In this document: piece by piece, positions 3,346 through 38,300 of the stretch
Numbering within the stretch: position 1 is the first letter of the stretch
Layout: each line of letters starts with the position of its first letter
DNA from: Wenzhouxiangella limi
GTDB lineage: Bacteria > Pseudomonadota > Gammaproteobacteria > Xanthomonadales > Wenzhouxiangellaceae
DNA length: 42,852 nt
Direction: 5' to 3'
Assembly (NCBI RefSeq): GCF_010499265.1
Contig: NZ_JAAGSC010000033.1
Coordinates: 1 to 42,852 of the forward strand
Notes under the pieces: generated by a model
What the model was told of the DNA's origin: nothing
What the model saw: only the letters and a program-made list of their open reading frames with translations
The model's database searches: none
Position numbers and translations under genes: made by a program

Positions 3346-3602
3346 GCCCGGACAGCGTGGAAATGGATTGACGTCACGACGCTCCACTTTGGGCACGAAG
3401 ACTACCGAAACGGACTCTCGTTCACGCCACGCAAACGTGACGCAATGCACATATTACTACCCGTATTGCCGGTGTCTATAAAGGGAGAGAGCCGGCCGAG
3501 CCGATGCTGGTGGCCTGTTAGCTTGATTAGGTCGTGCGGCTCAGTTTGACAAAGCTCGGGAAATCTGTGGGCGCCACGACAGGTCCACGGAACCAAGTCA
3601 CG

Positions 3603-3693
3603 CGACTACCCGACCCCCAGTCTATGGGTCACGCTGGTATTAAAAGTCCATAAATCAATAAGCTGTGTGGAACTGCAGGACTCGAACCTGCGA
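3603..3693. repeat. Left copy of 91-bp island-junction repeat
   Basis: Aligns without gaps to 5694-5784. Three blocks are conserved at identical spacing: a 29-bp block at 3603-3631 with two mismatches (core ccgacccccagtctatg), aaatcaataag at 3652-3662, and the tRNA T-arm word ctgcaggactcgaacctgcg at 3673-3692. The sequence between blocks has drifted. Read on the minus strand it is a tRNA 3' end followed by a downstream flank. That is the structure left by tyrosine integrases that use tRNA genes as attachment sites. Confidence 0.75.
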
Positions 3694-4043: not shown

Positions 4044-5420
4044 GTGATACGTTTATTGAACGCGAAAGTATTCTTTGCGGCAGCCCTGACTGGGTTGCTA
4101 AGTATGGTGCCAGGGTCCGATGCGGCGCAGGCCAGCTCAATGCCCTTCTCGGCGCAGCCTCAGCACATGATTCTAACGAAGGGTGCACCCAGCACCCAGC
4201 TGCTTGCGGCAATTGAAGACGCTGGAGCTGAGGTCGTTTTCTCCCATGACATTGGGTTTGTATTCGCCCGTGGACTGGATTCGATTTCGGCAGAATCGCT
4301 TACAGCCGTTAGGGGTGTCACTGACGTTCAAGGTGACCAGTGGTTCTCGGCCGATGAACCACAATTCACTGATGCGATTGAGTCGCCCGAAGTTTTCAGT
4401 CCGGATGATCCATCACAGGCTTTCTTTTATCCGCTGCTGCAGTGGAACATGCCGGCGATCTCTGCCGAGACCGCGTGGGAGGCTGGTAGAACAGGCTCTC
4501 CGGATGTGACAGTCGCTATTCTCGATACGGGAATTGACTATCAGCACTTGGATCTTCAGGGACGGGTTGATTTGTCGCGATCAGTCTCGTTTGTAGAAAT
4601 TGACGACCTGTTCGCGCAGGCTTTCTTCCCAGACAGGAACCTGATTGCTGATCTGCACTTCCACGGGACACACGTTGCTGCAACAGCAGTTTCAAACTCT
4701 ATCGTTGCAGCAGGTGTCACCTCAAAGCCGACCTTGATGGGCGTAAAAGTCTGCACATTTACCGACTTCTCCTGTTCTTTTGCTGCCGTGATCTCAGGCA
4801 TTCTGCACGCTGTTGACAACGGGGCCGACGTCGTCAACCTCAGCCTGGGTGGTGGATTCCCCAAAGCAGGCAATGGTCGTTTCGTTGGCTTCATCAACAA
4901 CATCTTCAACTATGCACGTAGAAATGGCTCGACGATGGTCGTGTCGGCAGGTAATGCAGCGACGGATCTTGACAAGAATGGGAATATTTTCGCGAGCTAC
5001 TGCGACGCTCCTGGTGTTATCTGCGTATCCGCGACCGGCCCGACTTCATCAGAAGGGGAGACTGGCCCCTGGTTCGAAGTCGATGCGCCTGCGGACTATA
5101 CAAACTTTGGGCGCTCATCTATCTCGGTGGCCGCACCCGGTGGAAACACCGGGGGTTCAGTCTGGGCTGCTTGCACCACTACGAGTTTTGTCCTTCCTTT
5201 CTCATGTGGCCCCGACTCCGTCCTTGGTATATCCGGCACTTCCATGTCAGCCCCTCATGTTTCAGGACTTGCTGCTTTGATAGCCGAGGATGTCGGTAGT
5301 CGCCCCGGGCGGGTAAAGTCCGCTATCCAGAAGGGTGCTGATGACCTTGGCCAGCGGGGTACGGACAAGTTTTACGGAAAAGGCAGAATCAACGTTGGCA
5401 AGACGTTGGGTTTGAACTAA
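4044..5420 (+). CDS. Secreted subtilisin-like serine protease (S8 family)
   Basis: A 458-residue protein starting at GTG, nine nt after the ribosome binding site gaggag (4029-4034). Residues 1-30 are a signal peptide. Residues about 40-110 are a short propeptide-like region (inhibitor I9-like in place and size). The S8 catalytic domain follows with the full triad: Asp161 (AILDTGID), His207 (HGTHVA) and Ser400 (GISGTSMSAPHVSG). Asn304 in SAGN is the oxyanion-hole residue. Six cysteines in the catalytic domain (near 237, 244, 320, 327, 377 and 388) could form disulfides in an exported enzyme. No C-terminal sorting domain is visible, so it is probably released as a soluble extracellular or periplasmic protease. 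It stands alone, followed by a terminator, between two island-junction repeats, which suggests it travelled as cargo. Confidence 0.93.
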   Translation: MIRLLNAKVFFAAALTGLLSMVPGSDAAQASSMPFSAQPQHMILTKGAPSTQLLAAIEDAGAEVVFSHDIGFVFARGLDSISAESLTAVRGVTDVQGDQWFSADEPQFTDAIESPEVFSPDDPSQAFFYPLLQWNMPAISAETAWEAGRTGSPDVTVAILDTGIDYQHLDLQGRVDLSRSVSFVEIDDLFAQAFFPDRNLIADLHFHGTHVAATAVSNSIVAAGVTSKPTLMGVKVCTFTDFSCSFAAVISGILHAVDNGADVVNLSLGGGFPKAGNGRFVGFINNIFNYARRNGSTMVVSAGNAATDLDKNGNIFASYCDAPGVICVSATGPTSSEGETGPWFEVDAPADYTNFGRSSISVAAPGGNTGGSVWAACTTTSFVLPFSCGPDSVLGISGTSMSAPHVSGLAALIAEDVGSRPGRVKSAIQKGADDLGQRGTDKFYGKGRINVGKTLGLN

Positions 5421-5487: not shown

Positions 5488-5693
5488 ATGGAGCAATTGA
5501 GCGCTGCAGACTCCTGGTAGATTCTAAACAGGCGCAGAAACGGCCTCCCATTGCGGCCAGGTTCGAAACAGGAACCGTTGGTAGATGTGCCCGCATCTTA
5601 TTTCGAAACGATAAAGAGTGACTCCCTAGACCACGAGTGAGTGCAATCCAGAAGCTCTGGTGCGAAGGTTTTTAGTGGTATCGGGGTTTAGAG

Positions 5694-5784
5694 CGACCAC
5701 CCGACCCCCAGTCTATGAGTCAACCGGCGGGTAAACCCATAGAAATCAATAAGATGGTGGGCCCTGCAGGACTTGAACCTGCGA
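5694..5784. repeat. Right copy of 91-bp island-junction repeat
   Basis: Partner of 3603-3693 (offset 2,091 bp, no gaps). It ends inside the 47-bp tRNA-derived direct repeat 5751-5797. On the minus strand both copies can form a short hairpin downstream of the tRNA end (CTATG...CATAG here, TATGG...CCATA in the left copy). The stems differ in sequence but both still pair. Confidence 0.75.
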
Positions 5785-5797
5785 CCTACCGATTATG
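5751..5797. repeat. Attachment-site copy: 47 bp identical to the tRNA 3' half
   Basis: Perfect match to 6653-6699 (offset 902 bp). It covers the T arm, 3' acceptor strand, encoded CCA and 4 nt of flank of the tRNA gene, and stops abruptly in the anticodon loop. This is the layout of attL/attR around an element inserted in a tRNA 3' end. Confidence 0.9.
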
Positions 5798-5958: not shown

Positions 5959-6345
5959 ATGATGCGAGTTTTCAAGACCCGCACTTTTGCCCGCTCGACC
6001 AGAAAGTTGGGGTTGACCGACGCTGCGCTCTGGGCCGCAGTCCAGGAAATGAGCGAAGGGCTCGTGGATGCGACTTTGGGTGGCGATCTCCTAAAGCAGC
6101 GAGTCGCATTATCGGGTCAGGGCAAGCGTGGTGGTGCCAGAACCATCGTTGCGATGAGAACGGCGGGCCGTTGGTTCTTTCTGTATGGCTTCAACAAGAA
6201 TGAGCGATCCAACATTGGCAAGCATGAACTGAAGGTGCTCCAGGAACTGGCCAAGGAGCTGCTTGCATTTGAAGATCGGCAGCTGGAGATTGCCCTGTCT
6301 GCCGGTGAAATTGTGGAGATCATCAATGGCGACAACAAAGCGTAA
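5959..6345 (+). CDS. HigB/RelE-type toxin of a type II toxin-antitoxin pair
   Basis: A 128-residue basic protein of the RelE-like family in which the toxin gene precedes the antitoxin (HigBA order). These toxins are generally mRNA interferases acting at the ribosome. Family features seen: N-terminal FKTRTFARSTRKLGL, a central basic GKRGGARTIVAM segment and the conserved beta-strand RWFFLYGFNKNERSNI. The frame is open back to a TTG at 5773, but that start lies inside the tRNA-derived attachment repeat and gives unrelated residues. I chose the double ATG at 5959/5962 because a -10 box and operator palindrome lie just upstream. The last 20 nt overlap the antitoxin gene. The pair is the only cargo between the two 47-bp repeats. 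Confidence 0.88.
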   Translation: MMRVFKTRTFARSTRKLGLTDAALWAAVQEMSEGLVDATLGGDLLKQRVALSGQGKRGGARTIVAMRTAGRWFFLYGFNKNERSNIGKHELKVLQELAKELLAFEDRQLEIALSAGEIVEIINGDNKA

Positions 6346-6646
6346 GAGTCGAATTCTGAGTGAGATGCACGAGACCGCGTGCGGGCTGCATGACGCAGGC
6401 CTGATCAGCAAACGTCGCATGGGCGAGTTCGAGGCGCTGTGCCATCTGGACGTTCACGAAATGCCGCCGCAGAAGATCAAGGCCTTGCGCGAAAAGGCGC
6501 ACGTAAGCCAGGCGGTATTTGCCGCAGTACTGAACACAAGTCTTTCGACCGTTCAGAAGTGGGAAGTCGGTGACAAAAAGCCTGGCGGCCCCTCTCTCAA
6601 GCTCCTGAACCTGGTCGAGCGGAACGGGCTCGAGGCGCTGCTGTAA
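6326..6646 (+). CDS. HigA-type XRE-family antitoxin
   Basis: A 106-residue protein with a C-terminal helix-turn-helix of the XRE/Cro type (residues about 50-95; VSQAVFAAVLNTSLSTVQKWE is the turn region). It would bind the HigB-like toxin and repress the shared promoter, probably at the palindrome 5936-5946. The start ATG at 6326 lies 20 nt inside the toxin gene, so translation is likely coupled. The frame stays open upstream, but those residues read through the toxin gene in another frame. The stop codon lies only 10 bp before the tRNA 3' end. Confidence 0.88.
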   Translation: MATTKRKSRILSEMHETACGLHDAGLISKRRMGEFEALCHLDVHEMPPQKIKALREKAHVSQAVFAAVLNTSLSTVQKWEVGDKKPGGPSLKLLNLVERNGLEALL

Positions 6647-6652
6647 AGCCGG

Positions 6653-6699
6653 AAGATGGTGGGCCCTGCAGGACTTGAACCTGCGACCTACCGATTATG
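6653..6699. repeat. Attachment-site copy within the intact tRNA gene
   Basis: The tRNA-side copy of the 47-bp direct repeat (partner 5751-5797). The intact tRNA gene is kept on this side, as expected when an element carries a replacement 3' end. Confidence 0.9.
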
Positions 6700-6733
6700 A
6701 GTCGGCTGCTCTAACCAACTGAGCTAAGGGCCC
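6657..6733 (-). tRNA. tRNA with CAT anticodon, probably tRNA-Ile2 (lysidine-modified)
   Basis: A complete 77-nt cloverleaf including an encoded CCA: acceptor GGGCCCT/AGGGCCC, D arm GCTC/GAGC, anticodon stem CCGA/TCGG with loop CTCATAA (anticodon CAT), T stem GCAGG/CCTGC with loop TTCAAGT. The GACTCATAATC core and TTCAAGT loop match what I recall of E. coli tRNA-Ile2, where TilS converts C34 to lysidine to read AUA. Elongator tRNA-Met is the alternative. It is transcribed leftward, 8 nt after the stop codon of the DUF3144 gene, so the two may share a transcript. Its 3' end is the insertion point of the island to its left. Confidence 0.93.
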
Positions 6734-22437: not shown

Positions 22438-22686
22438 ATGAGCGAAGCGACCACCAATCTCAAGGACGCCAAGGCGCGCCTGAGCGAGCTGGTTGATCGG
22501 GCCCAGGCCGGTGAGACCGTAACCATTTCGCGCCGAGGGCGGGTGGTGGCGCAATTGACGGCCAGTCCGTCCGCCCGCCGAGCCATTGACGTCGAGGCCT
22601 TGCGCGAATTGACCCGTCGGCTGCCCAGAACCGACCAGGAGGCCGGTCGGCTACTCCGCCAGATGCGCGACAACGCCCGCTATTGA
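22438..22686 (+). CDS. Phd/YefM-type antitoxin
   Basis: An 82-residue protein with the Phd/YefM N-terminal fold ([32 protein letters not shown]) and a charged C-terminal tail that would wrap the toxin. It is the antitoxin of the PIN toxin that starts at its stop codon. The frame is open far upstream inside sdaA, but the ATG at 22438 starts the family N-terminus and is 6 nt after a -10 box, so there is no ribosome binding site and the transcript is probably leaderless. Confidence 0.9.
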
Positions 22687-23117
22687 CGGTGGGGCCCTGT
22701 TACCTGGACACCAGCACGCTGGTGGCCGCCCTGGGCAACGAACCGCATACGGCAAGATCCCAGGACTGGCTGGCCGCCCAGGCCGCGCAAGACTTGTTCA
22801 TCAGTGACTGGGTGATCACCGAATTTTCCAGCGCGCTGGCGCTAAAGCTCAGAACCAGGCAGATTGAGGAAGATCACCGGGCCGAATGCCTGGCGGTTTT
22901 TGCCCGCCTGGTTGAGCACAGTCTGATCGTGCTGCCCGTCAGCAGCAGCGATTTCCGCGCGGCCGCTCGTCTGGGCGATCAGCACCAGATCGGCTTGCGC
23001 GCTGGTGACGCCCTGCACCTGGCCATCTGCGCCGCCCACGGCCTGCGCATGATCACCCTGGACAAGGCTTTGGCCCAAGCGGCCACCACCCTGGCCGTCC
23101 CGGCGAGACTGCTGTGA
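22683..23117 (+). CDS. VapC-type PIN domain ribonuclease toxin
   Basis: A 144-residue PIN-domain protein with the four acidic metal-binding residues: Asp9 (YLDTSTL), Glu47 (ITEFSSAL), Asp109 (RAGDALHLA) and Asp127 (ITLDKAL). VapC toxins cleave structured RNAs such as tRNA. It starts at TTG overlapping the antitoxin stop codon (ATTGA); a GTG two codons later is an alternative. It appears intact, unlike several PIN fragments further on. Confidence 0.9.
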
Positions 23118-23214
23118 GTTGCCCATCACAGGGTCGGTCTGCGCCTGTCCGGCACACCTGGCCCCAGCCCGGGCTTGCCGTTACTTGCGCCGTGAACGCT
23201 AGACTGGCCTGCTA

Positions 23215-24183
23215 ATGAAGCTCGCGTCCGCCCAGCTCTTCGCCGTTCTCCTGCTCAGCGGGCTGCTGACCGTGCCGGCAGCCTGGGCCCAGACGATTTA
23301 TAGCTGGACGGACGAGGACGGGATCACCCACTTTACTGATCGCAAGCCTGACACCGATCGGGAAGTGACGGTGCAAAAGGCGATCGCCGAGCCGGAATCA
23401 CCATTGGAGATCCGGCGCAGCGGGCCGGACGATGACCCGGTCTGGTGGTTTCGCAATCGCCTGGCCGGACCGCTGGCCGTGCGTCTCAGCCTGGCCGAGT
23501 CGGACAACGTGGTCTCCGAGCCTGAATTGCCGCGGGTCTTCATCCTGCCGGGCGAGACCGAGAGCGAGCTGGTCACCCTCGGCCCGCTGGACCCGCGCCG
23601 GTCCTGGCGCTACCGCTTTCAGACCGAGGCCGTGGTCGGTTCGCCCGAAGCCGTTCATCGCCCACCAGGGCCTTACCGCCCGCCGTTTGCGCCGGGTGAG
23701 TCGTTCACCATCGGCCAGGCTTTCGGTGGTGCGTTCAGCCACAGCGATGCGCAGTCGTTTCATGCCGTCGACATTGCCATGCCGGTCGGCACAGCCATTC
23801 ATGCAGCGCGCGCCGGGGTGGTTATGGACATCGCGCGCTACTTCCACCGCGCCGGTACCGACCGCGACCGCGACGGCCCCAGGGCCAACTTCGTCCGCAT
23901 CCTGCACGACGACGGCACCATGGCCGTCTACGCCCATCTCGACTACGAAGGCGTGCGTGTCCATCCCGGCGAGCGGGTGGCCAGAGGCCAGTACATCGGC
24001 CGCTCCGGCAACACCGGCTACTCCTCCGGACCGCACCTGCACTTCGTCATCCAGAAAAACCGCGACATGGCGCTGGTCTCGGTGCCGTTCGAGTTCGAGG
24101 GGGCGGGCGGCGGCGCGGTAACGCCGCGTGAGCGGCTGCGCCTGAGCGCACCTGATGCACGGACGCCCGGATCATCACTTTGA
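23215..24183 (+). CDS. Secreted M23 family metallopeptidase with a DUF4124 domain
   Basis: A 322-residue protein: signal peptide (1-25, FAVLLLSGLLTVPAAWA), DUF4124 (IYSWTDEDGITHFTDR), a linker domain and an M23 (LytM) domain at about 170-290. The zinc ligands are present as HAVDIAMPVG (His and Asp) and HLHFVIQ. M23 enzymes cut peptidoglycan cross-bridges or act as activators of amidases, in the periplasm. A TAGACT box lies 9 nt before the ATG. The last 23 codons lie in a 119-bp direct repeat (24114-24232), and the stop codon falls inside a fragment of a PIN toxin gene read in another frame. The C-terminal tail is therefore probably not ancestral. Confidence 0.92.
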   Translation: MKLASAQLFAVLLLSGLLTVPAAWAQTIYSWTDEDGITHFTDRKPDTDREVTVQKAIAEPESPLEIRRSGPDDDPVWWFRNRLAGPLAVRLSLAESDNVVSEPELPRVFILPGETESELVTLGPLDPRRSWRYRFQTEAVVGSPEAVHRPPGPYRPPFAPGESFTIGQAFGGAFSHSDAQSFHAVDIAMPVGTAIHAARAGVVMDIARYFHRAGTDRDRDGPRANFVRILHDDGTMAVYAHLDYEGVRVHPGERVARGQYIGRSGNTGYSSGPHLHFVIQKNRDMALVSVPFEFEGAGGGAVTPRERLRLSAPDARTPGSSL

Positions 24184-24232
24184 AGATGCACTGATCGCCG
24201 CGACCGCCTTGATCCATCATCTAACCGTTGCC
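24114..24232. repeat. 119-bp direct repeat, copy 1
   Basis: Matches 24790-24908 without gaps with about seven mismatches (offset 676 bp). It contains the end of the M23 gene and a piece of a PIN toxin gene (EDALIAATALIHHLTVA). Similarity stops right after gttgcc. It brackets the ParE-type module with copy 2. Confidence 0.9.
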
Positions 24233-24277
24233 GCTCTGAGACTGACGCGGAAAACGACAAGAGGTAAACTAGACCGC

Positions 24278-24472
24278 ATGGCTTCTAAATCAGACACCGT
24301 TAAGGCCAAGGCTCGGGAGTTGATTGAGCAGCTACCCGACACCGTAACCTGGGATGACGTGGCTTATGAAATCGCCGTACGTCGATCCGTTGAGCGTGGG
24401 CTGGACGATATTGATGCCGGGCGCACTTATACGAGCGAAGCCCTGCTGAAGTCTCTTGGCCTGAGTGCATGA
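24278..24472 (+). CDS. Small antitoxin of a ParE/RelE-type module
   Basis: A 64-residue acidic protein with the pattern LIEQLPDTVTWDDVAYEIAV followed by GLDDIDAGRTYTSEALLKSLG. This is common in antitoxins paired with ParE/RelE toxins, though I cannot name the exact family. The frame is open upstream through the PIN fragment to 24155; the ATG at 24278 is chosen because a TAAACT box ends 7 nt before it. The stop overlaps the toxin start (ATGA). Confidence 0.85.
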   Translation: MASKSDTVKAKARELIEQLPDTVTWDDVAYEIAVRRSVERGLDDIDAGRTYTSEALLKSLGLSA

Positions 24473-24768
24473 CGGTCATCTGGTCGGCCGAGGCGCAGGC
24501 TCAGCTTGCTGCCATTCATGAACATGTGGCCGAGAACGACCCCCAAGCTGCCGAGGCACTGATCAAGCGCCTGGTCGCCCGTGTTGTTCAGCTGGAGACT
24601 GTTCCGTTCAGCGGACGCAGGGTGCCTGAGTACCCAGACGACGACCTGCGCGAGTTGCTGTTACGACCTTATCGGATCATCTATCGGCAACGCGATGAGC
24701 GCGTGGAAGTCGTGACCGTGATGCACTACCGGCAGCTGTTGCCCATTAACCCCCACGACTTGACCTGA
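24469..24768 (+). CDS. ParE/RelE-type toxin
   Basis: A 99-residue protein of the ParE/RelE superfamily: IWSAEAQAQLAAIHEHVAE (helical hairpin), GRRVPEY, the strand LRELLLRPYRIIYR and a terminal EVVTVMHYRQLLP. ParE members poison gyrase and RelE members cut ribosomal mRNA; the sequence alone does not decide which. It shares an ATGA overlap with its antitoxin. The module lies exactly between the two 119-bp repeats. Confidence 0.9.
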   Translation: MTVIWSAEAQAQLAAIHEHVAENDPQAAEALIKRLVARVVQLETVPFSGRRVPEYPDDDLRELLLRPYRIIYRQRDERVEVVTVMHYRQLLPINPHDLT

Positions 24769-24789
24769 CTTCGGCAAAACCGTGTGAAA

Positions 24790-24908
24790 CGCGGTAACGC
24801 CGCGAGAGCGGCTGCGCCTGAGCGCACCTGATGCACGGACGCCCGGATCACCACCTTGAAGATGCACTGATCGCCGCGACCGCGTTGACCCATGATCTGA
24901 CCGTTGCC
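24790..24908. repeat. 119-bp direct repeat, copy 2
   Basis: Partner of 24114-24232. Beyond it the PIN reading frame continues to a natural stop at 24968, which suggests this copy keeps the original junction and copy 1 arose when the ParE-type module came in. Confidence 0.9.
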
Positions 24909-24968
24909 ACCCGCAATACGAAGGATTTCGGTTTGTTTGGCGTCAGTTTGGTCAATCCGTTCCGGTGA
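24822..24968 (+). pseudogene. C-terminal remnant of a VapC/FitB-type PIN toxin
   Basis: After an in-frame stop at 24819-24821 the frame encodes about 48 residues ending in EDALIAATALTHDLTVATRN followed by TKDF and a terminal VNPF. This is the usual last third of a VapC protein with its final catalytic acidic residues. The first two thirds are missing, so no toxin is made. Confidence 0.85.
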
Positions 24969-25057
24969 CCACCGAGAGGGGCTCAACGCCCGAACCGCCG
25001 TCCGCCTGCATACCCGTCGTGAACGCGCGGCCTGCGCGAAGAGTGGAATGACCGGTT

Positions 25058-25423
25058 TTGAAGTATCTGCTCGACTCGGTCATCGTGCTCGATCATCTTA
25101 ACGGCATTGCTGAAGCGACCGGGTTCTTGCGTGCGCATGCCCACCTGAGTGCCGTTTCCGTCATCACCCCGGCCGAAGTACTGGCGGGAGTATCAGACAC
25201 CGAGGAACAACCGGTCACCCGCCTGCTCAACCAGTTCCGCACTCTGCCGATGACGGTACAGGTGGCCGACCAAGCCGCCGCGCTGCGTCGCTCGGAACGC
25301 TGGAAACTGCCCGACGCGGTCAAGGCAGCCATTGCGATCGAATCCGGGCTTGTGGTGACCCACAATACCCGCGACTTTCAGCCGGGCAGCCTGCCCGAGG
25401 TGCTGATTCCTTACCGTCTGTAG
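25058..25423 (+). CDS. Orphan VapC-like PIN domain protein
   Basis: A 121-residue PIN-domain protein with Asp6 ([12 protein letters not shown]), Glu40 (TPAEVLAG), Asp86 ([10 protein letters not shown]) and Asp106 (NTRDF), so the ribonuclease site looks complete. It starts at TTG (25058). The stop codon of a 12-codon frame upstream (ending REEWNDRF) overlaps that start as TTGA. That short peptide resembles the tail of an antitoxin, and the rest of the antitoxin gene is not recognisable. The toxin may be silenced, neutralised by another antitoxin, or decayed in expression. Confidence 0.75.
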
Positions 25424-25463
25424 GTTATCGGCCTTTGAAAAGTGGTTAATGGCACCCAAGGCT

Positions 25464-25469
25464 TATAAT
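25464..25469 (+). promoter_or_regulatory. Probable -10 box of prfC
   Basis: A perfect TATAAT lies 27 nt before the prfC ATG, giving a leader of about 20 nt. No good -35 box at 16-18 bp is visible; TTGAAA at 25435-25440 is 23 bp away. Confidence 0.45.
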
Positions 25470-25496
25470 GGCCAGTTAGCTCAAGAAGTCGTTGAT

Positions 25497-27107
25497 ATGC
25501 CCCGCCTGCCCGAAGAAATCGCCCGCCGCCGCACTTTCGCGATCATCTCGCATCCGGATGCCGGCAAGACCACGCTGACCGAGAAGTTTCTGCTGTTCGG
25601 CGGGGCGATCCAGCTGGCCGGGTCGGTCAAGTCGCGCAAGGCTTCGCGCCATGCCACCTCGGACTGGATGGAGATGGAAAAAGAGCGCGGGATCTCGATC
25701 ACCTCCTCGGTGATGCAGTTTCCCTACCACGACGCCATCGTCAACCTGCTCGACACGCCGGGCCACGCCGACTTCTCCGAAGATACCTACCGCGTGCTGA
25801 CCGCGGTCGACTCGGCGCTGATGGTGATCGACTGCGCCAAGGGCGTGGAGGAGCGCACGATCAAGCTGATGGAGGTCTGTCGCCTGCGCGACACGCCGAT
25901 CTTCACCTTCATCAACAAACTCGACCGGGAAGGCCGCGAGCCGATCGAGCTGCTCGACGAGGTCGAAGAGGTGCTCGGCATCGAGTGTGCGCCGGTGACC
26001 TGGCCGATCGGCATGGGCCGGCGGCTCAAGGGCATCTATCACCTGATCCGCGACGAGATCCACCTGTACGAATCCGGCAAGAACTACATGCGCCAGGAGC
26101 CGCGCGTCATTGCCGGCCTGCACAGCGCCGAGGCCGATGAGGTACTCGGCCCGATGGCGGCCGAGCTGAGAGACGAGATCGAGCTGGTCCAGGGCGCCAG
26201 CCACGAATTTGACCTCGAGCGCTATCTGAAGGGCGGCCAAACGCCGGTGTTCTTCGGCTCCGCACTCAATAACTTTGGCGTCATCCCGCTGCTCGATGAG
26301 TTTGTCGAACACGCCCCGGCGCCGCAGCCACGCGCGACCCTGGGTCGGACAGTGCAGCCAGCCGAAGAAAAGCTCACCGGCTTCGTGTTCAAGGTCCAGG
26401 CCAACATGGACCCGGCCCACCGAGACCGCATGGCCTTCATGCGCGTGTGTTCCGGCGTTTTCGAGAAGGGCATGAAGCTGCATCACGTGCGCTTGGGCAA
26501 GGAGCAGCGCACCCACGGCGCCCTGACCTTCATGGCCGACGAGCGCGCGGCGGCCGAGTACGCCTACCCCGGCGATATCGTCGGCCTGCACAACCACGGC
26601 ACCATCGGCATCGGCGATACCTTCACCGAAGGCGAGAACCTGCAGTTTGCCGGCATCCCGAGCTTCGCGCCCGAACTGTTCCGGCGCGTCCAGCTCCGAG
26701 ACCCGCTCAAGCTCAAGGCCCTGACCAAGGGCCTGACGCAGTTATCCGAAGAGGGCGCGACCCAGTTTTTCAAGCCGCTGATCGGCAACGACCTGGTCCT
26801 GGGCGCGGTGGGCCTGCTGCAGTTCGACGTGGTCGCCTACCGGCTGAAGGCCGAGTACAACGTCGAGGCGCGCTTCGAGGCGGTCAACGTCGCCACCTGC
26901 CGCTGGGTGTCCTGCAGTGATGAGCGCGCGCTGGAAAAATTCCGCAACAAGAACGAGCAGCACCTGGCCGAAGACGGCGGCGGCCAGCTGGTCTACCTGG
27001 CCCCGACCCGGGTCAACCTTCAATTGGCCCAGGAACGCCATCCCGAAATCACCTTCCGCGCCACGCGCGAGGTCAGTGTGTATGTCGAGGTCGAGCAGGC
27101 GGCTTGA
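25497..27107 (+). CDS. prfC: Peptide chain release factor 3
   Basis: A 536-residue translational GTPase that removes RF1/RF2 from the ribosome after termination. GTPase motifs: G1 HPDAGKTT, the switch region [14 protein letters not shown]3 DTPGHADF and G4 NKLD. Later domains carry [17 protein letters not shown] and the C-terminal [18 protein letters not shown]. The length equals that of E. coli RF3 to within a few residues. The open frame starts 16 codons earlier, but the ATG at 25497 begins the conserved [20 protein letters not shown] region. A decayed second copy of its 3' end lies at 28303-28479, beyond an MntA-HepT module. Confidence 0.97.
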
Positions 27108-27244
27108 GGGGGGCTTTACACTGAGAAATTGAGAAATCAGTGGAGCAATGAGCGTCCCAAAGGTGAGCCTACGAGGGCTTGAGTCTGACTTCCCCTGATC
27201 TGCCGAGCTTTCGACCATCCCGGAACCTAACCTATACTTCACTG

Positions 27245-27631
27245 ATGGATACACAACTCCAGCAAATTTCCCAGTGGCTGGCAACCCAGCCGGATATCCG
27301 GCTGGCGGTCGGCTTTGGTTCGGTTGCCGAGGGCACAGCGAAGCCGGATAGCGATATCGATATTGCGGTGCGAGCCGAACAGCCGCTGGATGCCGAGCGC
27401 AAGATGGCGCTTATTGAGGGCATTGCGAGCCTGGCTGGTCGCACCGTGGATCTGGTTGACCTGGCGCGCATCGGCGAGCCGTTGCGAGGTGAAGTCCTGA
27501 GGGGGCAACGCTTGTTTGGCAGCGACGAAGATTGGGCCGAGCAAATGCTGCGTCACATCTACGACAACGAAGACTTCGTGCCTTATGTTCGGCGTCTGTT
27601 GGCCGAGCGACGTGAGCGGTGGCTGAGATGA
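27245..27631 (+). CDS. mntA: MntA-like nucleotidyltransferase antitoxin
   Basis: A 128-residue minimal nucleotidyltransferase with the signature GS-X10-D-X-D (Gly25-Ser26, Asp37, Asp39; GFGSVAEGTAKPDSDIDI). In MntA-HepT systems this protein inactivates the HEPN ribonuclease by adding AMP groups to its tyrosine. TATACT (27233-27238) ends 6 nt before the ATG, so the mRNA is probably leaderless. The stop codon overlaps the hepT start as ATGA. The gene order antitoxin then toxin is usual. Confidence 0.9.
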   Translation: MDTQLQQISQWLATQPDIRLAVGFGSVAEGTAKPDSDIDIAVRAEQPLDAERKMALIEGIASLAGRTVDLVDLARIGEPLRGEVLRGQRLFGSDEDWAEQMLRHIYDNEDFVPYVRRLLAERRERWLR

Positions 27632-28035
27632 TTACTGAACGCAAACTCGACTCTCTCCGACGTTGTCTCGAGCGAGTCCGACGCTGGTGCCCTGACGAGG
27701 CCGAAGCACTCACAGTCGATGTTGATGCGCAGGATATTTTGTCGCTCAATCTCACCCGAGCGGTGCAACTGTGCGTGGACATCGGTGCTCAGGTCTTGGC
27801 GCGCAGCGGAGCTGCAGCGCCACAGACGATGGCCCAGACCTTTGCCCAGCTCAGCCAGGAAGGCATCATTGCTCCGGAATTGGCCGAGCGCATGCGCCGA
27901 GCGGTAGGATTTCGCAATATAGCGATTCACGAGTATGACGAGATCGACTGGCAAATTGTCCACGCCATCGCCACCCGTCACTTGACTGACTTCGAAGATT
28001 TCGCGCGGGCTGCCGTCGCTGAGCTTGGCAGCTGA
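27628..28035 (+). CDS. hepT: HepT-like HEPN ribonuclease toxin
   Basis: A 135-residue all-helical HEPN protein with the R-X4-H-X-Y active motif (Arg96, His101, Tyr103; RNIAIHEY). Such toxins form dimers and cut tRNA or other RNA; Tyr103 is the expected AMPylation site. The ATG at 27628 overlaps the mntA stop. A GTG at 27619 is also in frame. Together with mntA it lies between prfC and a decayed copy of the prfC 3' end. Confidence 0.9.
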   Translation: MITERKLDSLRRCLERVRRWCPDEAEALTVDVDAQDILSLNLTRAVQLCVDIGAQVLARSGAAAPQTMAQTFAQLSQEGIIAPELAERMRRAVGFRNIAIHEYDEIDWQIVHAIATRHLTDFEDFARAAVAELGS

Positions 28036-28155
28036 AACAGCCCTCTTATGCTCAATTCATTAGAGAATCTTCGAATGCACTTGCTAGTAGCGTCACGCTG
28101 CGGAAAATCCCTGCCGACCATAGATTAAACCTCGCAGACCCAGTCGCGCCCGGGG

Positions 28156-28266
28156 TTGCGACTGATTGCGATGCTGGTGTTGGTCGCGATGGTGATCACT
28201 GGCCTGGCCGCTACGACGTCAGCTCAGGCGCAGACAGCGGTTGCGCCCACTATGCACTCTGAGTAA
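28156..28266 (+). pseudogene. Truncated signal-peptide-like coding remnant
   Basis: A 36-codon frame from TTG 28156 (ATG 28171 also possible) encodes a hydrophobic stretch (MLVLVAMVITGLAATTSAQA) followed by 12 residues and a stop. It looks like the first exported segment of a lost gene, cut off by the duplicated prfC piece that follows. The absence of a downstream domain makes a real short protein unlikely. Confidence 0.35.
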
Positions 28267-28302
28267 CGAAAACGATCCGCAGTCCGCAGGGCGTTGTCGT
28301 GT

Positions 28303-28479
28303 CTGCACAACCACGGCACCATCGGCGTCGGCGACACCTTCACCGAAGGCGAGAACCTGCAGTTTGCCGGCATTCCGAGCTTCGCGCCCGAGCTGTTGGC
28401 CCAGGAACGCCATCCCGAAATCACCTTCCGCGCCACGCGCGAGGTCGGTGTGTACGTGGACGTTGATCAGGCGGCTTGA
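28303..28479 (+). pseudogene. prfC 3'-end fragment with internal deletion
   Basis: The frame encodes [20 protein letters not shown] and on to APELL, then joins directly to [20 protein letters not shown] and ends DVDQAA. These match prfC nucleotides about 26586-26680 and 27025-27107, so about 340 bp between them were deleted. The junction lies at a shared ctgtt/ttgg word. Similarity runs a few bases past the stop codon. Several substitutions (Ile to Val, Glu to Asp) show that it is older than a fresh duplication. Confidence 0.9.
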
Positions 28480-28534
28480 GGCTTTGCAGTAGAGCAGGGG
28501 CTGACGCTGAGCAATACCAGCGCGGCTGGTCCGA

Positions 28535-28913
28535 CTATCGAGGCCTTCTTCGAAAACTGTCGCAGCCCGCGCCGGAAGTACCGTCGAGCAGTCGCTCGAC
28601 GGTATCCGGCAGCGGCAGGACAATAAGGCCGCAGATGGCCTGCCCGTACAAGTGACCAAAATCGCGACGATCACCGGTCACGAAAAGGTCGGCTTTTTGG
28701 GCTATTGCGGCTGCCAGGATGGGAATGTCCTTGGAAGGCAGTCCCTGGGCTCGAGCGGCGGCCAGATGCTCAGCGCCTGGCTCGGCACCGATGGCAACAT
28801 TGCCCAGCAAATTCTCGAGAATCTCCCCGCGTTGCGCGCGCTTACTGGCCAGGTTTCGACGCGCCTCTTCGACGGCAAGCCTGGACCGATGGGAGAAAAC
28901 ATGTTGAGCACAT
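28535..28913 (-). pseudogene. N-terminally truncated PIN domain gene
   Basis: On the minus strand, the frame encodes LAVEEARRNLASKRAQ, then KDIPILAAAIAQKADLFVTG and DRRDFGHLYG, the second half of a PIN domain with acidic residues. The expected first ~40 residues with the first catalytic Asp are absent, and there is no proper start before the divergent FitA-like gene. It looks cut off by the arrival of the neighbouring module. Confidence 0.65.
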
Positions 28914-28949
28914 AATAAAATGTGCGAAACATTTATAGTGGAGCAGGCC

Positions 28950-29180
28950 GTGAGCCACATGATTCAGATCAGGAACGTGCCCACCGAGCTGCATCGTGCG
29001 CTGAAAGCGCGAGCGGCAATGGAAGGGACGAGCATGAGCGAGCTGTTCTTGGACCTGATGCAAGGCTGGCTGGAGCTGCCCTCGGAACTGGAGTTACGCG
29101 AGCGGTTGCGCGATGCCGAGCCTTTCGACATGACCGAGTCCTCGGCCGAGCTGATCCGCAAAGAACGAGATGCGGCGTGA
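28950..29180 (+). CDS. FitA-type ribbon-helix-helix antitoxin
   Basis: A 76-residue protein whose first half is a ribbon-helix-helix DNA-binding fold (MIQIRNVPTELHRALKARAA, then MEGTSMSELF), with a charged tail (SAELIRKERDAA) for toxin binding. I chose GTG 28950 because GGAG lies 6 nt upstream (28940-28943); ATG 28959 is the other good choice. TATAGT at 28934-28939 may be its -10 box. Its toxin partner, overlapping by GTGA, is broken, so it is now an orphan antitoxin. Confidence 0.85.
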   Translation: MSHMIQIRNVPTELHRALKARAAMEGTSMSELFLDLMQGWLELPSELELRERLRDAEPFDMTESSAELIRKERDAA

Positions 29181-29475
29181 GTCGGATTCTGGTCATCGAT
29201 GCATCGATTGCCATCGACCTGATCGCCCGCTTTCGTCCCGAGCCGGGCAGATCCCCGCATCCCGGTCGGACCTGGCGGGCGAATTGAAATCATTGCCCAT
29301 CCGCCGTTACCGGCACGCAAACCTGCTCGACGGCATCTGGTCACTGCGCGGGCACCTCACCGCTTATGATGCTGCCTATGTCGTATTGGCCCGACTTCCT
29401 AACGCCACCCTGGTGACACGCGATGAACGACTGGCGCGCGCAAGCGGCCAGCTCGAGCGAGTGCTATTGCCGTAA
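29177..29475 (+). pseudogene. Broken FitB/VapC-type PIN toxin gene
   Basis: It starts at GTG overlapping the antitoxin stop. The first ~23 codons give a normal PIN start (MSRILVIDASIAIDLIARF), but the frame stops at 29285-29287. The normal C-terminal third (HLTAYDAAYVVLARLPNATL, TRDERLARASG) lies in the next frame up to 29475. The middle ~50 residues, with the second acidic residue, are missing. An internal deletion with a frameshift explains it. Confidence 0.88.
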
Positions 29476-32350: not shown

Positions 32351-35300
32351 GTGTCCAGATGGTTCGCGATTTTCATCGCGGTCTTTTATTGTGTAGTAAT
32401 CGAGGGGGCCTCGGCTCAGGAAGCCCCGGAACCGCAGTTGACCGAAACGGTTCCGGATGAGTCCTTTCTGGGCGAGCCGTTCTGTTTTAGCACTGAGGTG
32501 ACCAACTCCGGCCCGACCGGTTTCGGGCCTTATCTGCGCCTGGTGTTGCCGCCGCTGCTGCAGTTCGACTCGGCCTCGGCCTTCGGTGGCGGAACGGCTA
32601 ATTTTATCGGCCAGTTTCCTCTCGACCCGGATCCGTTGGTCACCGAGACTGAACTGAACGATCCGCGTATCGATGAGCCGGTAACCGGGCCGGAGGGTTT
32701 CTCCTATCGCAACATCTTGCTGCCGGTCGGCTCCCTGGTCGAAGGCTCTCCACCGCTACCGGTGGAAATCTGCCTGACGATCGACCCCGATGCCGTGGTC
32801 GGCGATCCGCTTACCGTGGACCTGACCCCGGTCTACCAGTTCGGCGACAGCGCCACCGGCGACAACGGGCCAATCGTCGGCGATGGGGTCGAGCAGGCGG
32901 TTGTTCCGACCGTCCTGCTGTTCGACAAGACCGACAGCACGCCCGAATCCGAACGGCCGCCGGGTAGCAGTTGGCGTTATGCCTATACCCTGTCTGTGGA
33001 TATCGCCAATACGGCGATCATCGATCCGATCACCATTGTCGACACCCTGCCGGACGATTTCCTGTACGAGGCGGGATCGGCGACCGTCGTGGCCGGGGAT
33101 AACTGTTCGGTGACGCAGGAGCCCCTGGGCGGCGCGCCGGGCGGGAACCTGGAAGTCCAGTGTGGTGCAAACGTGGGAATGACCGGGGGCGGCGAGATCG
33201 TCGTGACCTATTCGGGTCATATCGTCGATATTCTGAACGAGACTGTCTGCGAGACCAGTCCGATCATGAACGATGCGAGCGTGACGGCTACCTACATCGA
33301 TCAGGACAACAACCGCAATCCCCTGCCGGAGGTCTTCGACGACACCAAGGTCACGGCCGAGCATGTTGCGGTTCAAAAGAGGGCCTCGCCCGGACAGGCC
33401 AGCCCGGGAGCCGTGATCGACTACAGCTATGCCGTTCAGGTCACTGACTTTGGCGATGTCTCTGACCTGGTGTTTACCGACGTGCTCGCCGACGGAATCG
33501 ACCTTGATGCCGACAGCGTGATTTTCACGGTCGACGGAGACGCGCCGATCTCGATAATCCCCGACGTGACGGTGGCCAACGACACCACGGTGTTGCTCGA
33601 TCTGTTCTCGGCCTGGCAGGACGCGACCGGCAGCACGCAGATCGACGCCGGCAGCACGATTGCGGTCAGCTACCAGGGCAGCGTCCGTCAGACCTACCGC
33701 GAGACCGGCTTGCCGGTACTGGCCGCCGATGCCCTTGGCAACTCGGTGGTCGCCGACTACAACCTGCTGCAGGGCGCGAGTGCCTGCAGCGACGGCAGCG
33801 GTGCCACCGTGGACGTTCTGCCGGTATCGATCGACAAGTCACTGGTCGACGCCCAGGACTTCTACGAGCCGGGTGAAACCGTCATTTTCCGCCTGCGCAT
33901 GAATGTCCCTTCCGGTGATACGCGCGACATCGAGTTCCTCGACTTCCTGCCGCTGCCGGTGTTGCAGGTCGGCGACGTGGAACTCGCGTTCAGCACCGAC
34001 AAGGCCGATTGCGACGCCGGAACGGCCGGCATCTGCCTCGGCCCGGACGATACCGCGCGACTGACGCCGGTCGCAATCTCGGCCGATGGGGCGCAGAACG
34101 CCATCCAGATCGACTGGCCGGATGTCGATACCGAGGAGCCCCAGGTCATCGAGGTCGACCTGTATACCACCGTGACCGATGAGCCGTTCGCCGACGGGCT
34201 TGTCCTGACCAATATTCTCCAGGCCTTTACCGCCAACACCCCCGGCGAGATTGCGGCCGATACCGGCCCGGTACAGATCCAGGTCGGCGCGCCGGCGCTG
34301 GAACTGACCAAGGGCGTGATCGCTACTGATGGGGACGGTGTCATCGACCCGGTACCCGGAGATTTCCCCGAAGACAGCAGCATCAGCAAAGTCGAGGCCG
34401 GCGACCAGATCACCTTCCGCATGACCGTCGAAAACCTTGGCACTGCCCCGGCCTTTGAGGTCACGCTGTTCGATGACCTGCCGGCCGGGCTTTCCTTGTG
34501 CACGGTCGACGACGTGGTCACCCAAGCCGGAGACGGGCTGGATTTCAGCGGCGATCTGTTCGATGCCAACGATCCGCTCACCCTGAATGACCCGCTGCCC
34601 GGTCTGGCCGAGCCGCTCGATGAGCAGAACGTGGCCTTCATAGACTTCAGCTGCGAGGTCGAAATCGGTGTCCAGCCCGAAGAGCAGTTTTCCAACTTCG
34701 CCGTCGGCGCCTACACCTCCCAGCCCGGCGGGCCGGAGTTCCCGACCATCGAGGATGATGCCGCTATCGAGGTCGCCTTGGTCGAGTTAGGCAAGTCACT
34801 GGCCGCCAGCTCCGAAGCTCACACCAGCGACAGTGCCAACCCGCCGCGCCTGACCATTGGCGAGATCGCCCGCTATCGGCTGATCACGCGGATTCCGCGT
34901 GGCACCCTGCCGGACTTCACCGTCGAAGACGTGCTGCCGACCGGTCTGCAATTTCTCGACGATGGCACGGCCACGGTCGGATTTGTTTCCGCCAATGGTG
35001 ACATCACGTCTTCGACGCTCAGCGGCGTCGATTTGAACATGATCGGTTCCGACCCGAACGTGTCGCCGACCTTTCAGATTCCCGCCGCGGCGATCAGCGG
35101 CGAACCGTTCGAAAGCGGTACCAACCCGATCTTTAGCCTCGGCGATATCGTCAACTCGGAGACCGGTGACGACGACGAGTGGATCGTGATCGAATTCAAC
35201 GCCCTGGTACTCAATGCCGCGGCTAACAGTGCCGGTACCAACCGGGACAATCGTTTCCGTGCAAGTGTCGATAGTAGCCAGGTGGGAGACGACTCCAACG

Positions 35301-38300
35301 ACCAGCGCATCCGTATCGTCGAGCCGGCCATGAACGTGACCAAGTCGGCCAGCCCGGCCACAGGCCAGGCGGGTACGGTCATCGATTACGAGGTGGACTT
35401 GGATGTGCTGTCAGGCAGCGATCGGGCCGACGCCTTCAATGTCGTCGTTGACGATGTCCTGCCTGGCAGTGCCGTACTGGATACAAATTCGGTCAGCGTG
35501 ACAAACCAGTCCGGCTGCGGCTTGCCTGGCGTGACGGACTCTTCGGCTGGCAATACCGTCAGTGTAGCGTTCGATACGCTGCCCATCGGTTGCTCCCTGA
35601 GCGTTGTTTACCGGGCCACACTGTCGTTCAACGTCGTGCCCGGCACGACCCTCCTCAATACCGCCAGCCTGGGCTGGTCCAGTCTGCCCGACGGTGGCAG
35701 CGATCCCAACCCGACCGGATCAGTTACCCCTGGTGCGTCCGGTGATGGCGATGGCGCGCGGCTTTACGGCACCAACAATTCGGCTTCGGTAACCATTGAT
35801 AGCGTCGGCACCGAGAAAGACGTGTCCGCGACCACCGAATCGCACACGGCCGGCAATGACCTGGCCATTGGCGAGGTCGTGACCTACCGTCTGGCCATCG
35901 AAGTGCCCCAGGGTAGATCGCCGGACTTTACTGTCATTGAAGCGCTCGCCCCGGGTCTTGAATACCTTACCGGCACTGCGACACTGGGCTTTGTTGCCAA
36001 TGACGCCGGCATTCGTTCCGATGACGGGGCTATTGGCACCAACCCGCAGATTTCCGGCAACGATCCGAATGTCTCGCCAACCTTTAACGTGCCGGCGGGC
36101 AACCTTGATGTTAGCGGCGATCCATTGGGCGCGGGCACGACGCTGACCTTTGATCTGGGAACGCTCAGCAACGACGACGATGATGCTGACAGCGAATTCG
36201 TCGTCATCCAGTTCGATGCCCTGCTGCTCAATATCGCCGGCAACCAGGCGGGCACGGAGCGTGATAACCAGTTCAGCGTCGAGATCGCCGGCCAACAGAA
36301 CGGCCCGGCCTCCAATGCCGAAACCATCACCGTGGCGGAGCCGGAAATCGTGGGCTTGAGCAAGTCCGCCACCCCGGATTCGGGGCAGGCCGGCGACCCG
36401 ATCGAGTTCACGGTCAGCTACACGGTTGCCAGTGGTGCCAACACCGCCGATGCCTTCGACCTGCTGGTCGATGACGAACTGCCCGCCGAAATGGAACTGG
36501 ATATCGGCAGCATCGAGGTGACGCTGACCGACTGCCCCGATGCGCCGGTTGAAAGCGATCGGTCCTCGGACAACCAGGTGCTGCTGGAGTTTGCGGCGTT
36601 ACCCACCGGCTGCAGCGTGCAGATTGACTACGCCGCCGAGCTGCTGGTCGACGTCAAGCCGGGTCAGCCGCTGGAAAACACCGCCGATGTGACCTGGACC
36701 TCCTTGCCCGGCAGTGGTGCGGCCACGCCGGGAACCCCGGGCGGCCAGGAAGGCGAGCGCACCGGCGACGGTGGCGTCAACAACTATGCCGATTCGGCTT
36801 CCGGCGAAGTGACCATCGATGCGGTGGTGCTGAGCAAGAACATCATCGACGGCTCCGATCCGGTTACCGTGCTGCCCAAGAGCGCCATCGGCGAGACCAT
36901 CACCTATGAACTCGTCATCACCATTCCGCAGGGCACCACGCCCAGCGTGACCTTGCGTGACGAGGTGCCGCACGATGCCACCGGCGTCATGGAGCTGATA
37001 TCGGTCGCGGTGCCTGCCAATGGTATTGGTTCGAACCTCGATGTCGATAATCCCACCGGCAATCCGCAGATCCAGAATCTACGCCTGACTCCGCAGGGGC
37101 TCGCCGACACCGTCGATTTCGATTTCGGTCAGATCATCAATAACCCTGACACGGCTACCGGCGCGTCCGGCGAAAACGAGATAGTAGTAGAGGTCGAGGC
37201 CCGCCTGAACGATCTTGCGGCCAACGCCAGTGGCGATGTGCTGACCAACACCGCCGTGGTCCAGTTCGGCCCGGATCTGACCGCGTTGGCAGCCGCCGAT
37301 ATCGAGGTTGTCGAGCCGGCGCTGAATATCTCCAAGGTTGGTGATATCACCTCGGGTGATGCCGGTGACCTGGTCGAGTTCACCATTGAGATCGACCATG
37401 CCGGTGCCTCCAATGCCGATGCCCAGAACGTGATCTTTGTCGACGACCTGCCGAGCGCCGAAGTGGTCTATCAGACTGGCACGGTGGGCGTCGATGGTTA
37501 TGACGTTGACGTGGAGATCAACGACGGCGGCGGCATCATCACGGTTGAATGGCCCGCATTCCCGCAGGGCGAGTCGGCCACGATCACCTACCAGGCCGTG
37601 CTGGATAACACGGTGCAGACCGGCACGACGGTTACCAATACCGGGGAGCTGGAGTGGACTTCACTGGTCGACGATACCGAGCCGGAAGTGCGCGACTACG
37701 AAACCAGCGATACGCATGACATCGTGGTGTCCGACCCGGGTGTCGACAAGTTCATCTTCGCCACCAGCGAGCCGTCGACGAGCGACCCGGACCTGACCAT
37801 CGGCGAGCAGGTGACCTGGCGAGTCACGGTGACTTTCCCGCAGGGCCTGACCCCCGATGCCGAGTTCGTCGACCTGTTGCCTTCGGGTAATGACTTTGAC
37901 TATGTCAGCAGTGAGATCGTCTCGATCGGTTCGAACCTGGGTGTGGCCGGCATTTCGGCCGGAGATCTCGGGACCTTCGATGCCGGTGGTGGCACGGTGA
38001 CCTGGTCGCTCGGGACCGTGAGCAATCCACCGCTCGGCGCCAATGAGCAAGACCAGCAGATCGTTTTCGAGGTGGTGGCCGTGGTGCTCGATGAAACGGC
38101 CAATCAGAGCGGAGACAGCGCCACCAACCGCGCCCGGCTCAGTGCCGATACGCTGGCCAATGCCATCGAGGACACCAGCACCGTCGAAATGGTCGATCCG
38201 GTACTCAATTTCAACAAGACCGTTTCCGACCCGGTTTCGGGCATTGTCAATGCCGGGGATGTCGTCACCTTCGAGCTGGTCATCAATCATGGCGGTGTTT

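What the first reader, a model, noticed from the sequence alone, without database searches (positions are those of the whole stretch)
22438..29475. Three TA modules bracketed by direct repeats of a neighbouring gene's 3' end
Across the window, HigBA lies between tRNA 3'-end copies (47 bp), the ParE-type module between copies of the M23 gene's 3' end plus a PIN fragment (119 bp), and MntA-HepT between prfC and a decayed prfC 3' end. All three modules are without integrase or transposase, and the repeats show rising age (0, about 7 mismatches per 119, heavily decayed). A shared process that inserts TA cassettes at gene ends with a copy of the target end would explain this. The tRNA case is classical, while the two protein-gene cases are not. 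This is the best candidate here for an undescribed mobility pattern.
Basis: partly seen in the sequence, partly recalled or inferred. Interest (0 to 1): 0.72.

Follow-up and report, generated by a model that had tools for sequence, protein, structure and literature searches.

The report
Toxin-antitoxin genes inserted at gene ends
In this bacterium and in unrelated ones, small toxin-antitoxin gene pairs sometimes sit just beside an ordinary gene, between the intact gene and a leftover copy of its end; this suggests that they can arrive by recombination at shared gene ends, with no enzyme of their own.

Summary
In the window RelE/HTH (HigBA-like), ParDE and MntA-HepT are bracketed by copies of a tRNA-Met 3' end (47 bp, 100%), an M23-gene 3' end plus PIN remnant (119 bp, 94%) and the prfC 3' end (two blocks, 96% and 93%). 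It recurs. In the same genome TA genes lie between copies of rpmE, gmd, ICMT and antitoxin-gene 3' ends and of an hsdR 5' start. In relatives TacAT sits at prfC, and MntA-HepT plus VapBC in series at a 6PGDH-like gene. Of 80 MntA-HepT loci from many phyla, 18 are bracketed by direct repeats against 10 of 103 control centres; I read six as clean gene-end cases. Relatives lack both window inserts. Repeat homology mostly stops within about 15 bp of a stop or start codon. At rpmE the two copies carry markers of different relatives. I favour insertion with long target duplication, seeded by homologous recombination with incoming DNA carrying another allele of the gene end beside the TA; addiction may then protect the repeat-flanked insert. 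Such insertion is described for restriction-modification genes; my searches found no paper applying it to TA modules. New variant of a known kind.

The parts
6657..6733 (-). tRNA-Met (cat), intact target of two insertions
   Evidence: ARAGORN
6653..6699 (-). target copy 1: tRNA 3' end + 4 bp
   Evidence: 47 bp, 100% to 5751-5797
5751..5797 (-). target copy 2 (distal tRNA 3' end)
5962..6345 (+). RelE-type toxin (HigB-like) of the insert
   Evidence: PF06296, E 1e-42
6347..6646 (+). HTH antitoxin of the insert
   Evidence: HTH_3 E 1e-7
5693..5784 (-). tRNA 3' end + about 60 bp downstream, copy nearer the tRNA of the older pair
   Evidence: 78% to 3602-3693
3602..3693 (-). distal copy of the older pair
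4044..5420 (+). subtilase (S8) between the older pair; non-TA cargo
   Evidence: PF00082
23215..24183 (+). M23 peptidase gene with DUF4124; its last nine codons lie in PIN-derived DNA
   Evidence: C-termini of relatives
24114..24232 (+). target copy 1: M23 3' end + PIN remnant
   Evidence: 94% over 119 bp
24278..24472 (+). ParD-like antitoxin (name by position; no Pfam hit)
   Evidence: ORF
24469..24768 (+). ParE toxin
   Evidence: PF05016 E 7e-17
24790..24908 (+). target copy 2: M23 3' end + PIN remnant
24831..24968 (+). C-terminal remnant of a PIN (VapC) gene that resembles the intact one in relative G001
   Evidence: read by eye
25497..27107 (+). prfC (RF3), intact
   Evidence: PF16658 and others; orthologues
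26586..26680 (+). prfC block present again at 28303-28397
   Evidence: 96%
27024..27109 (+). prfC 3' end block present again at 28396-28481
   Evidence: 93%
27245..27631 (+). MntA nucleotidyltransferase antitoxin
   Evidence: PF18765 / PF01909
27619..28035 (+). HepT toxin
   Evidence: PF01934 E 3e-26
28303..28481 (+). distal prfC 3' fragment with a 343-bp internal deletion and its own stop codon

Best explanation
TA modules are inserted beside ordinary genes with a long duplication of the gene end (tens to several hundred bp). Proposed steps: (a) incoming DNA, linear or circular, carries a TA module next to the 3' end (or 5' start) of a gene that the recipient also has; (b) the shared gene end recombines by homology, so the intact gene keeps a complete end followed by the TA; (c) the other end of the incoming piece joins inside the resident gene end, by an illegitimate join or because the piece was circular, and leaves the resident gene end as a fragment beyond the TA; (d) such direct repeats invite deletion of the insert, and a TA punishes its own loss, so TA inserts outlast other cargo; (e) repeats at one gene give tandem arrays. 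Shown here: the anatomy, its recurrence, absence of the insert in relatives, serial accretion of different TA modules, homology mostly ending at codon boundaries, and two allele types at rpmE. Inferred: the recombination route, circles, and protection by addiction.
For: Recurrence in this genome: rpmE-Xre/RES (105 bp, 96%), gmd array with AbiE, PIN, PIN and YhaV modules, ICMT with an HTH_37 gene, antitoxin-gene end with DUF433/DUF5615 and PIN_3, hsdR start with HTH_66/PIN_10. Relatives: TacAT at prfC in G001; MntA-HepT and VapBC in series in G005. Other phyla: L292, L293, L295, L299 (with HicAB in series), L300, L313. Absence of inserts: MntA not found beside prfC in 16 of 16 relatives with prfC in the fetched stretches; ParD/ParE not found between M23 and prfC in 11 of 11 with both genes. 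Asymmetry: with E below 3e-8, prfC 3'-end fragments away from contig ends at 4 loci and 5' fragments away from contig ends at 0 (same 30 genomes). Outer boundary of the repeat: 14 of 16 3'-end cases within 15 bp of the stop codon or tRNA end (11 of 13 after merging repeated copies of one gene end), 3 of 3 5'-start cases within 2 bp of the start codon. Two alleles at rpmE: the distal copy shares an extra GGC codon and GCCGAC after the stop with G013; the intact copy shares 17 bp after the stop with G002. Differences between copies are richer in synonymous changes (nonsynonymous share 0.46) than my estimate for self-duplication followed by drift (0.59).
Against: The route is not observed. Whole-stretch identities do not single out G013 or G002 (distal copy nearest G022 at 69%; intact copy G022 85.5, G002 84.4, G013 84.3), so the two-allele claim rests on a codon, a hexamer and a 17-mer, and the extra codon also occurs in G019. 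prfC copies are each nearest their own intact gene. Three cases do not end at a gene boundary: the M23 copies run on into PIN DNA, the S8 pair runs 60 bp past the tRNA, and two gmd insertions lie inside dead copies. Offsets were read by eye; the uniform null and the 0.59 expectation are my assumptions. Gene-end classification was not blind. Non-TA cargo exists. No donor with TA beside an unduplicated rpmE or prfC was found in the loci searched.
Confidence: 0.5

Rival explanations
1. Insertion with long target duplication by a break-repair or template-switch process inside one genome: the resident sequence is itself duplicated as TA DNA is captured, and selection keeps only cases in which the gene stays whole.
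For: Same anatomy; variable duplication lengths; gene starts and intergenic sequence duplicated too (hsdR, L295, L299, L192); nested insertions in dead gmd copies; prfC copies nearest their own gene.
Against: Homology ends at codon boundaries more often than random breakpoints would give; rpmE copies carry markers of different relatives; excess of synonymous differences.
Confidence: 0.25
2. Remnants of integrase-borne elements that target gene 3' ends; the integrase has been lost or acts in trans.
For: The 47-bp tRNA-end duplication and tandem insertions at one site look like that; tyrosine integrases that restore gene ends are established knowledge (recalled).
Against: Many different targets with repeats of 47 to over 500 bp, inserts that hold little but one TA module, no integrase ORF seen in the window inserts, 5' starts also used.
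Confidence: 0.08
3. Separate tandem duplications of gene end plus TA, each followed by loss of the second TA.
For: Would give the same order of parts for a single case.
Against: Adjacent units of one array hold different TA modules (gmd, G005, L299), and loss would have to stop at the gene end again and again.
Confidence: 0.1
4. Chance, REP-like repeats, integron attC sites or assembly artefacts.
For: 8 of the 14 bracketed TA loci in the genus are REP-like, intergenic or unclear and 2 are attC; some rpmE pieces in relatives lie at contig ends.
Against: The gene-end cases contain coding sequence of an adjacent intact gene, lie inside contigs and recur in unrelated genomes.
Confidence: 0.07

Closest known systems
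Insertion with long target duplication of restriction-modification genes (Nobusato et al. 2000, not read; described in PMC1643837, PMC3031569, PMC3874152, passages read)
   Same: Addiction-type cargo inserted between long, variable direct repeats (order of 100 bp) of the target, without a mobile element; the repeat-flanked form is said to allow amplification.
   Different: Here the cargo is TA modules of many families; repeats are mostly gene ends whose homology stops near codon boundaries; at one site the two copies carry markers of different relatives; arrays of different TA modules form.
Integron gene cassettes with TA modules
   Same: Small TA-only units in arrays separated by repeats; addiction as stabiliser of arrays is proposed for superintegrons (passages of PMC2654758).
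   Different: The repeats here are not attC sites; attC-bracketed TA cassettes occur elsewhere in this genome.
tRNA- or gene-3'-end-targeting integrative elements
   Same: Target 3' end restored and duplicated; tandem accretion.
   Different: No integrase seen, no constant core, 5' starts also used, about 1 kb of cargo.
Homology-facilitated illegitimate recombination in transformation (recalled)
   Same: One homologous and one illegitimate junction would give this anatomy.
   Different: Known from experiments, not tested here; my search pairing it with toxin-antitoxin found 0 papers.

Membership tests
Insertion with long target duplication | Insert flanked by direct repeats of target sequence, long and variable | tested here: met
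   Repeats of 47 bp to over 500 bp
Insertion with long target duplication | Related genome without the insert | tested here: met
   No MntA beside prfC in 16 of 16 relatives and no ParDE between M23 and prfC in 11 of 11; exact empty-site junctions were not aligned
Insertion with long target duplication | Repeat is a self-copy of the recipient target | tested here: inconclusive
   prfC copies nearest their own gene; rpmE copies show markers of two relatives
Integrase-borne element | Integrase gene in the element | tested here: not met
   Only TA ORFs recognised in the three window inserts; no integrase-specific family search was run
Integrase-borne element | Constant att core | tested here: not met
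   Different target sequence at each site
Integron cassette | attC site at each boundary | tested here: not met
   Repeats read as gene ends; attC-like sites seen at other loci
Type II and related TA modules | Toxin family and adjacent antitoxin | tested here: met
   Pfam; some partners have no Pfam hit
Addiction-stabilised insert | Loss of the insert is costly to the cell | not testable with these tools
   needs an experiment

The most novel reading that the evidence does not exclude
TA modules spread as integrase-free homology cassettes: recombination between the two gene-end copies releases a circle of one gene end plus the TA, which can enter any related cell and integrate at the same gene by ordinary homologous recombination, so a pirated gene end serves as the attachment site and addiction as the anchor.
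Probability: 0.3. Interest if true: 0.8.

Novelty: new variant of a known kind. Interest (0 to 1): 0.58.

Why it matters
How small TA modules, which carry no recombination gene, spread between genomes is an old question. If many of them enter at gene ends with a duplication, their boundaries, donors and ages can be read from sequence, gene-end fragments become fossils of past insertions, and the idea that addiction keeps unstable inserts in place becomes directly testable. It would also join TA and restriction-modification genes as addiction cargo that uses the same route.

Tried and rejected
Integron explanation: attC sites do flank other TA loci (L126, L133, L178, L185) but not these. Single integrase: no constant core. 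Rising age: rejected. Two-lineage test at prfC: gave no support for foreign copies. prfC fragments in G019 and G022: in G019 the fragment lies upstream of the kinase gene that follows prfC in other relatives, so the locus is rearranged; the G022 fragments match other genomes slightly better than their own prfC; neither was resolved. rpmE pieces in G007, G012 and G016 lie at contig ends and were not counted. One search used wrong positions for clipped minus-strand loci; one search replaces it. HepT and FitA queries were in a wrong frame, so only MntA, ParD and ParE absences are used. The list is capped at E about 3e-8, so fragments weaker than that were left out of the comparison. In some searches the glmS frame was wrong; the glmS counts were set by eye, and repeats the test without glmS. 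The ICMT offset typed (-45) is nearer -41. No structure prediction was run.
Full report
WHAT IS THERE. The window is one whole contig (G000:C25) of a 3.35-Mb genome. The scans confirm three bracketed TA modules: RelE/HTH between tRNA-Met 3' ends (47 bp, 100%), ParDE between copies of the M23 3' end joined to a PIN remnant (119 bp, 94%), and MntA-HepT between prfC and a prfC 3' fragment (96% and 93% blocks, 343 bp missing between them). Pfam supports the cargo. A fourth pair of tRNA-end repeats brackets a subtilase gene. A Phd-PIN pair (22438-23117) and later PIN/FitA remnants are not bracketed.

ABSENCE IN RELATIVES. In stretches fetched from relatives MntA is not found near prfC in 16 of 16 genomes that show prfC, and ParD/ParE are not found between M23 and prfC in 11 of 11 that show both. 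M23 in G001 and G013 ends at ...RERLRLSAQ* and ...RERLRLRAE*, so the last codons of the window's M23 come from PIN DNA; that fusion is in both repeat copies and therefore older than the ParDE insertion.

RECURRENCE IN THE GENUS. A search of 30 genomes with the RF3 C-terminus found extra prfC 3' ends in G001, G019 and G022 besides the window genome. In G001 the fragment lies 924 bp after prfC and the gap holds TacA1 and GNAT genes: a different TA at the same gene end. The matched N-terminal query found 5' pieces only at contig ends among the matches it listed; above the E-value where that list was cut the comparison is 4 loci against 0. In the window genome, stretches around PIN and ParE hits show rpmE-Xre/RES, a gmd array, ICMT, an antitoxin-gene end repeated four times among TA genes, and an hsdR 5' start around HTH_66/PIN_10. 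In G005 a 6PGDH-like gene end occurs three times with MntA-HepT and a VapBC pair between. Non-TA cargo occurs at alaX (no Pfam hit), glmS (an ATPase region by my reading) and the S8 gene. glmS, ICMT, copA and the antitoxin gene were named by me from sequence.

CONTROLS. 20 control stretches of the same genome (400 kb) gave 10 repeat pairs, none a protein-gene end beside its own fragment; one tRNA-end-bearing repeat around non-TA DNA (L174) is unexplained and counts against TA specificity. Bracketing repeats: 14 of 59 TA-centred loci against 1 of 30 glyoxalase loci (p = 0.011), of which about four are gene ends.

BEYOND THE GENUS. 80 HepT loci were fetched from a scan that had more matches than it kept, many of them clipped by contig ends. 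18 of 80 are bracketed, against 10 of 103 centres 4 kb away (p = 0.015). I read six of the 18 as clean gene-end cases (L292, L293, L300, L313: 3' ends; L295, L299: 5' starts), against none of the control centres, or one if L308 is counted, which itself brackets a TA-like pair by my reading (p = 0.006 or 0.03). L299 has MntA-HepT and then HicAB, each followed by another copy of the same hsdR-like start. This classification was not blind.

BOUNDARIES AND ALLELES. Outer ends of homology lie within 15 bp of the stop codon or tRNA end in 14 of 16 cases, or 11 of 13 after merging copies of one gene end (offsets read by eye), and within 2 bp of the start codon in 3 of 3. M23, the S8 pair and the nested gmd insertions do not fit. 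At rpmE the distal copy has RYGGK* followed by GCCGAC as in G013 (the extra codon is also in G019), while the intact copy has RYGK* followed by a 17-bp stretch shared with G002. Overall identities in the same call do not point to those two genomes, and the prfC copies do not show this split. Across 14 repeat blocks 88 of 191 coding differences are nonsynonymous (87 of 189 without glmS), fewer than I estimate for self-duplication and drift.

INTERPRETATION. Homology that ends where gene conservation ends, two allele types at rpmE, and arrays of unlike modules fit recombination with incoming DNA that shares a gene end. A template-switch type of target duplication remains possible. TA enrichment may reflect survival: direct repeats delete easily, and a TA resists its own loss. 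That last step is inference.

LITERATURE. Passages of PMC1643837, PMC3031569 and PMC3874152 describe insertion of restriction-modification genes with long, variable target duplication, citing Nobusato et al. 2000 and Furuta et al. 2010, neither of which I could read. Passages of PMC2654758 treat TA systems as addictive and apparently mobile and cite the same work for restriction-modification systems. Searches in the open-access library listed no paper whose title or listed abstract start describes this for TA modules; papers outside that library were not searched.

Noticed in passing
G000 C15 near 227.6 kb (L126), C30 near 1.7 kb (L133): attC-like sites around TA and other small genes: a chromosomal integron cassette array; no integron integrase was looked for.
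   Followed up: no
G000 C31 99-108 kb (L135, L136): Array of gmd and glmS end fragments among five TA or Abi modules; fragments themselves split by further insertions near the same gmd position.
   Followed up: partly
L174 15668-17777: tRNA-3'-end-bearing repeats (76%) around about 1.65 kb without a recognised TA in a control stretch.
   Followed up: no
window 32351-42852: Long open frame with many internal direct repeats, cut by the contig end.
   Followed up: no
L300 3752-5560: Open frame joining a PemK-like toxin domain to a DegT aminotransferase, just upstream of the MntA-HepT insert.
   Followed up: no
G022:C39 5167-5322 (L066): prfC 3' fragment beside what looks like a REP-associated transposase gene, closer to prfC of G001 and G015 than to its own.
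   Followed up: partly
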